Source: Streptococcus oralis
Lineage (GTDB): Bacteria; Bacillota; Bacilli; Lactobacillales; Streptococcaceae
Length of the DNA stretch: 64,000 nucleotides
Direction: 5' to 3'
Assembly (NCBI RefSeq): GCF_001578935.1
Contig: NZ_KQ969521.1
Location: forward strand, 789,777 to 853,776
This document shows positions 15,618-40,842 of the stretch, in pieces. How positions within the stretch are numbered: position 1 is the stretch's first letter; each line of letters begins with the position of its first letter. A model generated the notes under the pieces. It ran no database searches and was not told where the DNA came from. It saw only the letters and a program-made list of their open reading frames with translations. A program made the translations under genes and the position numbers.

Positions 15618-15785
15618 TATGCACCTCCTATGATTTTTAGGGTTTCCCCGTATTTTTGTGAAGACTCGCCTAGCATCGTGGGACGAACCACTTAAAAGAA
15701 GAACTCTAAGTATAACAAAGTTTAAATTTGTTATACGACGAGCAAACGATGTTCGTGCGGTTGCACAGGACTGTGCATAGTCAAC
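15618..15785 (-). promoter_or_regulatory. L21 leader (5' UTR regulatory RNA)
   Basis: About 168 transcribed bases separate the promoter from rplU. The leader contains a perfect 10-bp inverted repeat (GTATAACAAA / TTTGTTATAC, arms 15710-15719 and 15727-15736) plus further short hairpins. Position and size fit the known Firmicute L21 leader class; assignment is by context rather than a covariance match. Confidence 0.6.
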
Positions 15786-33700: not shown

Positions 33701-33831
33701 CAAAAAGAAAAGTCTCCTTCTACAAGGAGACTTGAAATGTATAGCCAAGCGAGCCTTACTGTATACAGTATAGACTTCACCCTTCTACTTTATCGCGCTC
33801 CTTGCCTGCCTCACGGGACAGGATTAAAGGA
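33701..33831 (-). promoter_or_regulatory. PyrR-dependent attenuator of the pyr operon
   Basis: Minus strand: PyrR binding loop at 33799-33831, with core GTCCCGTGAGGCAGG flanked by TCCTT and AAGGA, followed by a terminator: AAGTCTCCTT / AAGGAGACTT (33710-33733) and a nine-base T-rich run. Classic order for UMP-PyrR-controlled termination. The anti-terminator would have to form from the sequence between. Confidence 0.92.
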
Positions 33832-33848
33832 CTATTTAGTTATCATTT

Positions 33849-35240: not shown

Positions 35241-35570
35241 ATGGAAGATAAAGAACTCATCACTGAAGCTTACCAACTCCTTTCCGAGTTAAATAAAAGC
35301 TACCAAAGCTGTAAACAAGGAACTGCCGATGATCTTCGACTGCAAGAGTTGCTGAACACCACTCTTAAGGAACTAAAAAAAGCAGAAAAGCTGGACAACA
35401 GTATCTTAATCGACCTTGAGAAATTTTACCAACGTACCAGTCTACTGATTGGACTGGGTAGCCTAAAACTAAACAATCAAGCTCGTACTGCTTGGCGCAA
35501 CTATGACAAGTTCCACTACGAACATGTCAAACACATATTGACTCTCTATGGGCCTGTTTTTGGTTTTTAG
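35241..35570 (+). CDS. bacteriocin immunity protein (enterocin A immunity family)
   Basis: 109 residues, all-helical, no signal peptide. Start MEDKELITEAYQLLSELNKS and the C-terminal LKLNNQARTAWRNYDKFHYEHVKHILTLYG (given here only as an overall pattern of helix 4 and an amphipathic end) fit the EntA-immunity family that protects pediocin-like bacteriocin producers. No bacteriocin structural gene is adjacent, so it may give cross-immunity to others. Preceded by AAGGAGG. The ABC-F leader promoter begins right after the stop. Confidence 0.7.
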   Translation: MEDKELITEAYQLLSELNKSYQSCKQGTADDLRLQELLNTTLKELKKAEKLDNSILIDLEKFYQRTSLLIGLGSLKLNNQARTAWRNYDKFHYEHVKHILTLYGPVFGF

Positions 35571-35593: not shown

Positions 35594-35622
35594 TTGACAA
35601 AATTTCCTTAAAGGTATAGGAT
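35594..35622 (+). promoter_or_regulatory. promoter of the ABC-F leader transcript
   Basis: Perfect TTGACA, 17-base spacer, TAGGAT. Predicted transcript start about 35629, some 300 bases before the ABC-F gene. Confidence 0.65.
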
Positions 35623-35644
35623 AAAGGTACTAATACTCGGAGGT

Positions 35645-35665
35645 ATGGGAGACATGAACAACTAA
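35645..35665 (+). CDS. leader peptide (MGDMNN or MNN) upstream of the ABC-F gene
   Basis: CGGAGG ends at 35643. Two in-frame ATGs follow: at 35645 (spacing 1, too short) and at 35654 (spacing 10). Either way the frame ends at TAA 35663-35665, coding MGDMNN or MNN. The stop codon overlaps the first base of the terminator stem, so a ribosome held on this ORF would block the hairpin. Predicted from layout only. Confidence 0.55.
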   Translation: MGDMNN

Positions 35666-35707
35666 TCTATCAAATAAAGAACTTTATTTAGTAGATCTTG
35701 TTTTTGT
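35665..35707 (+). terminator. leader terminator 1 (attenuator)
   Basis: ATCTA(TC)AAATAAAG pairs with CTTTATTT(AG)TAGAT across an AA loop, followed by CTTGTTTTTGTC. Stem is AT-rich but 13 bp long. Confidence 0.65.
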
Positions 35708-35751
35708 CTCTTTTTGTGTGCTCTTTTTATACTAGATTTTCTAGTATCTTG

Positions 35752-35843
35752 TCCTCATTGAAAATCAAAAAACTGGAAAGTTATGCTTCTCTTGAGTTAG
35801 GGTAGGTATTTCCAAGCTAGTTTGACGAGCTTTTCAACGAGGA
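35752..35843. repeat. 92-bp MITE-like element with 13-bp inverted ends
   Basis: TCCTCATTGAAAA (35752-35764) and TTTTCAACGAGGA (35831-35843) are inverted at 12 of 13 positions; inner ACTGGAAA / TTTCC...AGT extends the symmetry. The left end resembles the end of pneumococcal BOX C (ATTGAAAATCAAA), but the body does not match BOX as I remember it. Confidence 0.5.
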
Positions 35844-35869
35844 TAATAGAGTTTTGACAGTGACTTTGG

Positions 35870-35896
35870 GCTCTACTAGGTAAAGTAGAGCTTTTT
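35870..35896 (+). terminator. leader terminator 2 (attenuator)
   Basis: GCTCTACT / AGTAGAGC perfect stem, 6-base loop, TTTTT; lies 36 bases upstream of the ABC-F start codon, so it must be bypassed for expression. Confidence 0.85.
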
Positions 35897-35932
35897 GTTA
35901 TGCACTATCGACATTCTAGAAAGGGCGATAAT

Positions 35933-37459
35933 ATGATAAACATCAATCATCTAACCATCACTCAAAACAAAGATTTGCGGGACCTTGTATCTGACCTAAG
36001 CATGACCATCCAAGACGGAGAAAAGGTTGCTATTATTGGTGAAGAAGGAAATGGTAAATCGACTTTACTAGGAGCTTTAATGGGAGAAGAATTGCCTGAT
36101 TTTACTATCAAGGGCGACATCCAGTCTGACCTTCAATCACTAGCCTACATTCCACAAAAGATAGCTGAGAACCTGAAAAAGAAAACTCTACATGACTACT
36201 TCTTTTTGGATTTTGCTGATTTAGACTACAGTATCCTCTATCGCTTAGCTGAGGAGTTACACTTTGATAGCGACCGTTTTGCTAGCGACCAAGAAATTGG
36301 CAGCCTCTCGGGGGGTGAAGCTTTGAAAATTCAACTCATCCATGAATTAGCCAAACCCTTTGAGATTCTATTTTTAGATGAACCTTCAAATGACCTAGAC
36401 CTTGAAACAGTTGATTGGCTAAAAAGGAAGATACAGAAGATGAGGCAAACTGTTATTTTCATTTCTCATGATGAAGACTTTCTTTCTGAAACGGCAGATA
36501 CGATTGTCCACCTGAAACAGGTCAAGCACCGGAAAGAAGCAGAAACACTAGTCGAGCATGTAGGCTATGAACGCTATAGTGAGCAGAGAAAGGCTAATTT
36601 TGCTAGACAAAGCCAGCAAGCTGCCAACGACCAGAGACTCTATGACAAAACCATAGAAAAGCATCGCCGCGTCAAGCAAAATGTAGAAACTGCCTTACGT
36701 AACACTAAAAATGATGTTGCTGGTCGCCTATTGGCTAAAAAGATGAAAACTGTTCTCTCTCAAGAAAAACGCTTTGAAAAGGAAGCTCAGTCCATGACCA
36801 AAAAGCCACTTGAAGAGGAACAAATCCAACTTTTCTTTTCAGACATCCAACCATTACCGGCTTCTAAAGTCTTATTCCAACTGGAAAAAGAAAATTTGTC
36901 CATTGGCCAGCGCATTTTAGCTCAGGAGTTACAACTAACGGTCCGTGGCCAAGATAAAATCGGTATCATAGGGCCAAATGGTGTTGGAAAATCAACTCTG
37001 TTAGCCAAGTTGCAACAACTGCTCAGCGCCAAAAGAGAGATTTCGCTTGATTTTATGCCACAAGATTACCATAAAAAACTGCAATTGGATCTATCTCCAG
37101 TAGCCTATCTCAGAAAAACTGGGGAAAAAGAGGAACTACAGAAAATCCAATCTCACCTAGCCAGTCTTAATTTCAGCTATCCAGAGATGCACCACCAAAT
37201 CCGCTCCCTATCTGGCGGGCAACAAGGTAAACTCCTACTTTTGGATTTAGTGTTGCGCAAACCAAACTTTCTCCTTCTGGATGAGCCTACACGAAACTTT
37301 TCTCCCACTTCTCAACCCGAAATCAGAAAACTCTTTGCCTCTTATCCTGGCGGTCTCATCACTGTTTCCCATGACAGACGCTTCTTAAAAGAGGTCTGTA
37401 CGAGTATCTATCGTTTGACAGAAAATGGTTTGGAGGTCGTCGATTTACAAGATTTATAA
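35933..37459 (+). CDS. ABC-F family ATPase, possible ribosome-protection / antibiotic resistance factor
   Basis: 508 residues from the ATG at 35933 (AAAGGGCG upstream); the frame extends to 35900 but begins right behind the terminator. Two ABC domains and no membrane segments, hence ABC-F. Domain 1: Walker A GEEGNGKST, signature SLSGGE, Walker B LFLDEPSNDLDLE. Domain 2: Walker A GPNGVGKST, signature SLSGGQ, Walker B LLLDEPTRNFSP. The linker (about residues 205-290) is charged and helical, as in factors that reach into the ribosome. The attenuator leader is a feature shared with resistance ABC-Fs. Target drug unknown. Confidence 0.85.
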   Translation: MININHLTITQNKDLRDLVSDLSMTIQDGEKVAIIGEEGNGKSTLLGALMGEELPDFTIKGDIQSDLQSLAYIPQKIAENLKKKTLHDYFFLDFADLDYSILYRLAEELHFDSDRFASDQEIGSLSGGEALKIQLIHELAKPFEILFLDEPSNDLDLETVDWLKRKIQKMRQTVIFISHDEDFLSETADTIVHLKQVKHRKEAETLVEHVGYERYSEQRKANFARQSQQAANDQRLYDKTIEKHRRVKQNVETALRNTKNDVAGRLLAKKMKTVLSQEKRFEKEAQSMTKKPLEEEQIQLFFSDIQPLPASKVLFQLEKENLSIGQRILAQELQLTVRGQDKIGIIGPNGVGKSTLLAKLQQLLSAKREISLDFMPQDYHKKLQLDLSPVAYLRKTGEKEELQKIQSHLASLNFSYPEMHHQIRSLSGGQQGKLLLLDLVLRKPNFLLLDEPTRNFSPTSQPEIRKLFASYPGGLITVSHDRRFLKEVCTSIYRLTENGLEVVDLQDL

Positions 37460-40719: not shown

Positions 40720-40842
40720 GGTTTTTAATGTCATCCTGTGAGGTGACGAAGGCGCAGATTTATATAAATTTTTAAAAGATAGCTATTTTTTAAAAAGTCT
40801 TACTCTGAGGGCCTATTGCTGCAAAATAATGGGCTCTTTTTT
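40720..40842 (+). promoter_or_regulatory. PyrR-dependent attenuator of the uracil permease gene
   Basis: PyrR binding loop at 40720-40753 (core GTCATCCTGTGAGGTGAC with flanking AAGG), then an A/T-rich stretch, then a terminator around 40807-40842 (GAG..CC..ATT pairing with AATGGGCTC and six Ts). Matches the pyrR leader in plan; the terminator stem has a GG bulge. Confidence 0.82.

What the first reader, a model, noticed from the sequence alone, without database searches (positions are those of the whole stretch)
35594..35932. ABC-F gene behind a two-terminator leader with a tiny upstream ORF
In order: a TTGACA promoter, a GGAGG-led ORF coding MNN (or MGDMNN), a long hairpin plus T-run whose first base is the last base of the ORF stop codon, about 160 bases, then a second textbook terminator 36 bases before the ABC-F start. 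A ribosome paused at the end of the ORF would cover the left arm of terminator 1 and let transcription through. Established knowledge: ribosome-mediated attenuation through very short uORFs controls several resistance ABC-F genes (Listeria lmo0919 is the case I recall). Inference: this gene is an antibiotic-inducible ribosome protection factor, and the leader is a drug sensor. The second terminator suggests a second layer.
Basis: partly seen in the sequence, partly recalled or inferred. Interest (0 to 1): 0.75.

Follow-up and report, generated by a model that had tools for sequence, protein, structure and literature searches.

The report
Two-terminator RNA switch before ABC-F gene
Ahead of a streptococcal gene resembling known ribosome-protecting, antibiotic-resistance genes lies an RNA switch in which a ribosome halted on a three-codon reading frame should release two transcription stop signals at once; its first half has been catalogued for years as a small RNA.

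Summary
Hairpin 1 lies in Rfam SpF43_sRNA, the Northern-listed pneumococcal RNA F43 (PMC3395615). It runs 35649-35710, with the whole M-N-N uORF in its left arm and TTTTTG after it. A ribosome held on the uORF should block terminator 1 and free segment 2 to capture segment 3, disabling terminator 2: one key for two locks, not two layers. The 2:3 helix shows 29 double compensatory events in 10 of 11 pairs on a tree of 32 streptococci; column-shifted controls give 2, 1 and 2. Folding with the uORF blocked forms 2:3 in 172 of 175 genomes; a block elsewhere does so in 9. The logic is that of Bacillus vmlR (uORF MIN; anti-antiterminator, antiterminator, terminator); the differences are that the anti-antiterminator is itself terminator-like and that its product was filed as an sRNA. 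Switch anatomy is well supported. The inducing drug and the protein's resistance function are inferred.

The parts
35594..35622 (+). promoter, TTGACA-17-TAGGAT; start of transcription inferred near 35629
   Evidence: promoter-like pair in 164 of 185 genomes; Rfam F43 model starts at 35629
35639..35643 (+). Shine-Dalgarno sequence GGAGG of the uORF
   Evidence: GGAGGT before the uORF in the 132 leaders parsed of 136 (the parser required it)
35654..35665 (+). uORF ATG AAC AAC TAA (M-N-N)
   Evidence: three sense codons in 128 of 132 parsed leaders; 160 of 175 in the wider set, with a parser that preferred that length
35629..35725 (+). SpF43_sRNA (RF02436): leader up to and just past terminator 1
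   Evidence: 103.8 bits, E 5e-24
35649..35715 (+). hairpin 1 = anti-antiterminator and terminator 1 (stem 35649-35710, U tract 35711-35715)
   Evidence: -20.6 kcal/mol; basal GAGACA/TGTCTC is GAGATA/TATCTC in another species group
35666..35679 (+). segment 1, TCTATCAAATAAAG: upper left arm of hairpin 1, just after the uORF stop
35682..35695 (+). segment 2, CTTTATTTAGTAGA: right arm of hairpin 1 and 5' half of the antiterminator
35716..35867 (+). variable spacer that folds on itself; replaced by other inserts, some BOX-like by recall, in relatives
   Evidence: 35735-35860 has one match in its own genome
35872..35885 (+). segment 3, TCTACTAGGTAAAG: left arm plus loop of terminator 2 and 3' half of the antiterminator
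   Evidence: 2:3 duplex -16.1 kcal/mol
35868..35897 (+). terminator 2 (stem 35868-35893, T run at its end)
   Evidence: -13.0 kcal/mol
35933..37459 (+). ABC-F protein, 508 aa (by position the ortholog of SP1282), nearest solved relative VmlR2

Best explanation
A ribosome-mediated transcription attenuator of the 1:2 / 2:3 / 3:4 kind. Without a stalled ribosome, hairpin 1 (1:2) forms over the uORF. It ends most transcripts at its own U tract, leaving the F43 RNA, and it locks up segment 2, so RNA polymerase that slips through meets terminator 2 (3:4). When a drug that acts at the peptidyl transferase centre holds a ribosome on the M-N-N uORF, the left arm of hairpin 1 is covered and terminator 1 cannot form. 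Segment 2 then pairs with segment 3 as that is made, and terminator 2 cannot form. One stall lifts both terminators and the ABC-F is made. Shown here: anatomy, conservation, covariation of 2:3, energy order in the window (-20.6 for hairpin 1, -16.1 for 2:3, -13.0 for terminator 2) and the computed switch. Inferred: termination and read-through in vivo, drug induction, and that the ABC-F protects ribosomes from pleuromutilin, lincosamide or streptogramin A drugs.
For: Covariation of 2:3: 35 haplotypes by 11 pairs, 93.2% paired against a mean of 76.9% (maximum 81.8%) in 2000 partner shuffles, 62 both-side cells against 14.7. On an IQ-TREE tree of 32 ABC-F proteins, 29 double compensatory events in 10 of 11 pairs, 44 other changes; columns slid by 1, 2, 3 give 2, 1, 2 double events; 200 partner shuffles give mean 2.7, maximum 10 (a first run with 30 rows gave 25 in 9 of 11). 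Complementarity of terminator 2 with the upstream 420 nt exceeds all 20 first-order Markov shuffles in 161 of 184 genomes and the 99th percentile of all shuffles in 134 of 184. Switch: in the window with RNA ending at 35897, P(1:2 inner)=0.82, P(T2)=0.92, P(2:3)=0.00 without ribosome; with 35639-35669 blocked P(2:3)=0.98 and P(T2)=0.01; S. pneumoniae SMRU824 (L215) gives 0.95 and 0.04. Across 175 genomes with RNA ending after segment 3: 2:3 below 0.2 when free in 170, at least 0.5 with the uORF blocked in 172, at least 0.5 with a block in the spacer in 9. Start codon alternates ATG 166, TTG 7, GTG 2 among 175. F43 lies directly upstream of the ABC-F in 26 of 29 loci by coordinates and in 2 more by reading; the last runs off its contig. 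F43 is listed with Northern support in TIGR4 between SP1281 and SP1282 (PMC3395615, passages). Same logic shown by experiment for vmlR (PMC9226507, passages).
Against: Equilibrium: with all of terminator 2 present the blocked uORF pushes T2 below 0.2 in only 53 of 174 genomes, and in the window itself a longer RNA ending at 35945 goes back to T2 0.98 and 2:3 0.00 even when blocked. The model thus depends on 2:3 forming first and holding until polymerase has passed. In L215 with the ribosome at AUG the inner part of hairpin 1 still forms at 0.82 while terminator 1 is being made; it drops to 0.01 only with the third codon in the P site. Segments were found by complementarity and put in register by hand, which favours pairing; four of 40 rows did not fit 11 columns and were left out (G021, G106, G303, G307; the last two pair poorly), and four more had no protein for the tree. 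Terminator 2 finds its best complement in its own leader in only 11 of 64 representatives, since haplotypes are shared, though own exceeds the mean of others in 60 of 64. The count of basal stems over the uORF (172 of 175) is not evidence: 475 of 525 shuffled controls also have one; at 8 bp or more it is 157 of 175 against 310 of 525. Terminator 1 is not universal: 112 of 175 have 4 or more T in the 7 bases after that stem, and the main M-K-N group has none. The main text of the pneumococcal Ribo-RET paper holds no hit to this locus by gene tag, the coordinate prefixes tried or the uORF string (PMC9426450). No induction data were found.
Confidence: 0.84

Rival explanations
1. F43 is chiefly a trans-acting small RNA that pairs with mRNAs elsewhere; its place before the ABC-F gene is secondary.
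For: Annotated as sRNA in Rfam. A 2025 survey lists it as candidate M52 with matches in 385 of 385 pneumococcal genomes, with no sORF noted for it (PMC12323649, passages); that survey says it excluded known cis-regulators.
Against: Next to the ABC-F gene in 28 of 29 loci, the last off its contig; conserved uORF with SD and alternating start codons; segment 2 covaries with terminator 2, which is outside F43. F44, from the same 2012 screen, is called a PyrR site in that survey.
Confidence: 0.07
2. The uORF senses something other than drugs, such as asparagine shortage, slow termination or general translation stress; the switch is the same but the signal differs.
For: The third codon is Asn (AAC/AAT) in most three-codon uORFs: MNN 112, MKN 22, LKN 6, MIN 4, MRN 3 and single others among 160, while codon 2 varies. 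VmlR is induced by ribosome assembly defects (PMC9226507 abstract).
Against: The gene is an ABC-F nearest to VmlR2, and vmlR, cplR and ARE5 genes with tiny uORFs answer to peptidyl-transferase drugs (passages). Three codons give little room to sense one amino acid.
Confidence: 0.12
3. Two separate layers: terminator 1 under the uORF, terminator 2 under another signal.
For: Terminator 2 is stable by itself, and in many genomes stays favoured at equilibrium with the uORF blocked.
Against: Its left arm AND loop are conserved as the complement of segment 2, with 29 double compensatory events; the loop would have no reason to follow segment 2 otherwise.
Confidence: 0.05
4. Ordinary terminators of the upstream gene (35241-35570), no regulation.
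For: The upstream gene ends at 35570, close by.
Against: A promoter lies between them; 113 of 185 genomes show no match to that gene in the 600-900 nt held, and 100 of the 103 of these that were tested keep the switch.
Confidence: 0.02

Closest known systems
vmlR leader of Bacillus subtilis (uORF MIN; SL-1 anti-antiterminator, antiterminator, SL-3 terminator), PMC9226507, passages read
   Same: Tripeptide uORF inside the first hairpin; stalled ribosome frees an antiterminator that excludes the terminator; downstream gene an ABC-F; last uORF residue Asn as in most streptococcal ones.
   Different: In the passages read SL-1 is an anti-antiterminator with pause sites and SL-3 is the terminator. 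Here hairpin 1 carries its own U tract and its product is a known RNA. vmlR also has an SD-sequestering hairpin (SL-4); none was looked for here.
Listeria lmo0919/vgaL and Clostridioides cplR leaders (PMC10201436, passages; the Term-seq paper itself was not held, and is recalled)
   Same: Very short uORF (MR[I/M] for cplR), hairpin over the uORF, terminator before an ABC-F gene.
   Different: cplR's terminator also hides the ribosome-binding site; other uORF peptides. Leader sequences were not compared here.
SpF43_sRNA, RF02436, F43/Spd_sr63/M52
   Same: The same RNA.
   Different: Annotated as a stand-alone sRNA; here read as the terminated leader of SP1282.
ermK attenuator (recalled only, no call)
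   Same: As I recall, two truncated leader transcripts under one leader peptide.
   Different: rRNA methylase gene, longer leader peptide, macrolide inducer (recalled).
mefA/msrD leaders of streptococci (PMC10314930, passages)
   Same: Streptococcal ABC-F with uORF-driven attenuation.
   Different: Mobile elements, macrolide-arrest peptides, different leader.

Membership tests
ribosome-mediated transcription attenuator (AAT/AT/T type) | short uORF with SD in the leader | tested here: met
   Sequence and conservation only; translation itself not tested
ribosome-mediated transcription attenuator (AAT/AT/T type) | mutually exclusive anti-antiterminator, antiterminator and terminator | tested here: met
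   In silico; caveats (long RNA)
ribosome-mediated transcription attenuator (AAT/AT/T type) | inducer-dependent read-through | not testable with these tools
   needs RNA from treated cells
SpF43_sRNA (RF02436) | score above the Rfam gathering cutoff | tested here: met
   103.8 bits against 70
trans-acting sRNA | own function apart from its neighbour gene | not tested
   no target search made
ABC-F protein | two ABC domains joined by a helical linker, no membrane part | tested here: met
   PF00005 in 2 stretches; model pLDDT 87.6, linker helices 212-257 and 261-288; the best fold matches by E-value are ABC-F proteins
NCBIfam NF000355 ribosomal protection-like ABC-F | score above the curated cutoff | tested here: not met
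   299.1 bits against 380; also far below the Sal, Vga and Msr cutoffs
antibiotic-resistance ABC-F (ARE-ABCF) | intact ATPase glutamates and long interdomain linker | tested here: inconclusive
   DEPSNDLD and DEPTRNFSP present, key residues invariant in 22 sequences; aligned stretch collinear with VmlR2 (478 against 481 aa) and 19 aa longer than with YheS
antibiotic-resistance ABC-F (ARE-ABCF) | confers drug resistance by ribosome protection | not testable with these tools
   needs MIC and ribosome work

The most novel reading that the evidence does not exclude
A 'one key, two locks' attenuator conserved across Streptococcus. The anti-antiterminator is itself a terminator whose product has been taken for a small RNA, a single stalled ribosome opens both terminators, and the nearly fixed Asn before the stop of a three-codon uORF (M-x-N-stop, as in vmlR's MIN) is the drug-selective part of the sensor. 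Genes taken for trans sRNAs in other bacteria may hide the same design.
Probability: 0.4. Interest if true: 0.7.

Novelty: new variant of a known kind. Interest (0 to 1): 0.56.

Why it matters
If right, pneumococcus and most streptococci (protein at E <= 1e-120 in 224 of 284 genus genomes) carry an intrinsic, inducible ABC-F of the VmlR kind under a drug-sensing leader, which bears on tolerance to lincosamides and pleuromutilins such as lefamulin. It turns a catalogued sRNA (F43) into a cis-regulator with a precise, testable mechanism, and it gives a genus-wide natural series of three-codon uORFs for asking how PTC drugs pick stalling sites. No paper naming SP_1282 or F43 as an attenuator was found in the open library. 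Limits: most subscription papers are not in it; of two papers naming SP_1282 one could not be opened; and the TIGR4 term-seq study reports 162 early termination sites (PMC6296669, passages) whose supplementary list I could not read, so these ends may already be tabulated there.

Tried and rejected
MGDMNN as the uORF: rejected, not conserved. Hairpin 1 starting at the stop codon: rejected, the stem base is outside the uORF. Weak rli42 match over 35770-35898 (15.6 bits, cutoff 80): treated as chance. Spacer 35735-35860 as a repeat in its own genome: one match, itself. Plasmid copies of the protein: none at 1e-60. The 'base 1:2' column was off register and is not used. The tree held only 14 rows because a motif filter was too strict; replaced, whose script failed after the tree, then (30 of 40 typed haplotype rows; all 32 that had 11 columns and a protein). 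Other Lactobacillales ABC-F leaders have short uORFs such as MYTI but no streptococcal segment 2/3 by eye; not analysed further. Rows dropped: three loci off contig ends (L179, L189, L198); 10 of 185 genomes before the switch counts because terminator 2, a duplex score of 19 or the uORF was missing; 4 of 136 leaders not parsed. The uORF parser took only 2-8 sense codons and preferred three, so its length tally leans that way; one search did not. Of 224 genus genomes with the protein at 1e-120 (284 searched), leaders of 185 were taken.

Full report
WHAT IS THERE. The window is most likely from a mitis-group streptococcus (closest named relatives: S. oralis, S. mitis, S. infantis, S. pneumoniae, S. 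pseudopneumoniae). The promoter, SD, uORF, two hairpins and ABC-F gene are present. Hairpin 1 with its surroundings is Rfam RF02436, SpF43_sRNA, at 103.8 bits. In TIGR4 F43 lies between SP1281 and SP1282 and is listed with Northern support (PMC3395615, passages). A 2025 survey lists it as M52 = F43/Spd_sr63, with matches in 385 of 385 pneumococcal genomes and synteny kept, among candidate sRNAs (PMC12323649, passages).

THE MISSED FEATURE. The right arm of hairpin 1 (segment 2, CTTTATTTAGTAGA) is complementary to its own left arm and also to TCTACTAGGTAAAG (segment 3), which is the left arm plus loop of terminator 2. So 1:2, 2:3 and 3:4 are mutually exclusive, as in classic attenuators. The computed energies are ordered -20.6 (hairpin 1), -16.1 (2:3 duplex), -13.0 (terminator 2).

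CONSERVATION. The ABC-F is found at E <= 1e-120 in 224 of 284 genus genomes. I took leaders of 185. In the closer set, 132 of 136 leaders (some genomes twice) parsed with GGAGGT, a uORF and segment 2: 108 M-N-N, 20 M-K-N, 4 MYKKSIA. In the wider set of 175 genomes the uORF has 3 sense codons in 160, 5 in 10, 7 in 5; peptides are MNN 112, MKN 22, LKN (TTG start) 6, MIN 4, MRN 3 and others; three rows printed MET are parsing errors of MNN/MKN leaders. That parser preferred three codons. Starts are ATG 166, TTG 7, GTG 2: alternation of start codons at one place argues for translation rather than for a conserved RNA sequence only. RF02436 matches 29 of 98 genomes at E <= 0.001, all in the genus, 17 over the cutoff, and 0 of 14 control genomes. 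Of the 29 loci taken from that search, 26 have the ABC-F start just downstream by coordinates, 2 more by reading, and one runs off its contig.

COVARIATION OF 2:3. In distant species both halves differ and still match, for instance CCTTATTAAGC/GCTTAATAAGG, CTTTATCAAGT/ACTTGATAAAG and ACTTATTTGGT/ACCAATTAGGT (one mismatch). Over 35 haplotypes and 11 pairs, 93.2% of cells pair, against a mean of 76.9% and a maximum of 81.8% in 2000 partner shuffles. On a protein tree of 32 representatives there are 29 double compensatory events in 10 of 11 pairs and 44 other changes; columns slid by 1, 2 and 3 give 2, 1 and 2 double events; partner shuffles give mean 2.7, maximum 10 of 200 (25 events with 30 rows). 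Caveats: segments and register were chosen by complementarity, and four of 40 rows did not fit 11 columns, two of which (G303, G307) pair poorly. Two checks without that choice: the best complement of terminator 2 in the upstream 420 nt beats all 20 Markov shuffles in 161 of 184 genomes, and the 99th percentile of shuffles in 134; it beats the mean of other genomes' leaders in 60 of 64 representatives, but is best or tied in only 11 of 64.

THE SWITCH IN SILICO. In the window, unblocked RNA ending at 35897 has terminator 2 at 0.92 and 2:3 at 0.00. With a ribosome-sized block over the uORF, 2:3 is 0.98 and terminator 2 is 0.01. With RNA ending at 35945 the blocked form goes back to terminator 2 at 0.98, so the order of events matters. 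For the S. pneumoniae locus L215 the blocked values are 0.95 and 0.04 with AUG in the P site, and 0.77 and 0.20 with the third codon there; while terminator 1 is being made, the inner part of hairpin 1 still forms at 0.82 with AUG in the P site, and at 0.01 with the third codon there. In 175 genomes, with RNA ending just after segment 3, 2:3 is below 0.2 in 170 when free, at least 0.5 in 172 with the uORF blocked, and at least 0.5 in 9 with a block of the same size in the spacer. Against: with the whole of terminator 2 present, equilibrium puts it below 0.2 in only 53 of 174 blocked cases. There the antiterminator must win by forming first.

IS HAIRPIN 1 A TERMINATOR EVERYWHERE? In the window and its group the U tract follows the stem directly. 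Genus-wide, 4 or more of the 7 bases after a basal stem are T in 112 of 175, but the stem count itself (172 of 175) is not informative: 475 of 525 shuffled controls also give a stem of 6 bp; at 8 bp or more it is 157 of 175 against 310 of 525. The main M-K-N group lacks the T run. The core therefore seems to be 1:2/2:3/3:4, with termination at hairpin 1 added in part of the genus.

THE PROTEIN. 508 aa with two ABC domains. The best solved relative by sequence is VmlR2 (8buu, 1.8e-57), and by fold of an AlphaFold2 model, ranked by E-value, also VmlR2, then PoxtA and Sal(B); housekeeping EttA and YheS follow closely, and TM-scores do not separate them. It scores 299 bits to NF000355, below the cutoff of 380, so I do not file it as a proven ribosomal protection protein. 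No plasmid copy was found at 1e-60.

COMPARISON WITH WHAT IS KNOWN. vmlR of B. subtilis has a Met-Ile-Asn uORF inside SL-1 (anti-antiterminator), an antiterminator and an intrinsic terminator SL-3, shown by mutation and toeprints to answer to lincomycin (PMC9226507, passages). cplR, vmlR2, lsaA (PMC10201436, passages) and Streptomyces ARE5 genes (PMC12421871, passages) have tiny uORFs too. The word Streptococcus was not found in the main texts of PMC9226507, PMC10201436 and PMC10219788. The streptococcal leader works like these. It differs in that hairpin 1 carries its own U tract and corresponds to a known RNA, and in that one stall should lift two terminators. As I recall, with no call, ermK also gives two truncated leader transcripts. 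I therefore rate it a new variant of a known kind.

WHAT IS NOT SHOWN. Translation of the uORF, termination in vivo at each site, induction, the drug, and resistance. In the Ribo-RET paper's main text I found no hit for neighbouring gene tags, the coordinate prefixes tried or the uORF string (PMC9426450). I have not seen whether its filters would keep a three-codon ORF.

Noticed in passing
window 40728-40823 (+) and 33702-33834 (-): SpF44_sRNA (94.5 bits) and a PyrR binding site (55.4 bits) beside the locus; F44, from the same screen as F43, is called a PyrR site in PMC12323649, a precedent for F43 being a cis-regulator.
   Followed up: partly
window 15652-15772 (-): Ribosomal protein L21 leader, 40.2 bits.
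   Followed up: no
35654-35665 and relatives: uORF consensus M-x-N-stop: codon 2 varies (N, K, I, R, Y, L) while codon 3 stays Asn in most three-codon uORFs; vmlR's MIN fits too. Possible context-specific stalling.
   Followed up: partly
35716-35867 and relatives such as L001, L012, L125: The spacer between the two terminators is swapped between species for other inserts, some BOX-like by recall, with segment 2 to segment 3 distance from about 70 to 300 nt; the switch tolerates it.
   Followed up: partly
L279-L301 (other Lactobacillales): ABC-F homologs of 34-46% identity have other leaders, many with other short uORFs (MYTI, MDTI, MLTI type) seen by eye.
   Followed up: no
and rows such as G157, G236, G242, G243, G001, G109: Some species' ABC-F matches are flagged with one stop inside while the leader is kept; G157 is split in two frames.
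   Followed up: no
window 35241-35570 (+): Upstream 109-aa ORF (SP1281 by position) has no Pfam match; a match lies upstream in 72 of 185 leaders.
   Followed up: partly
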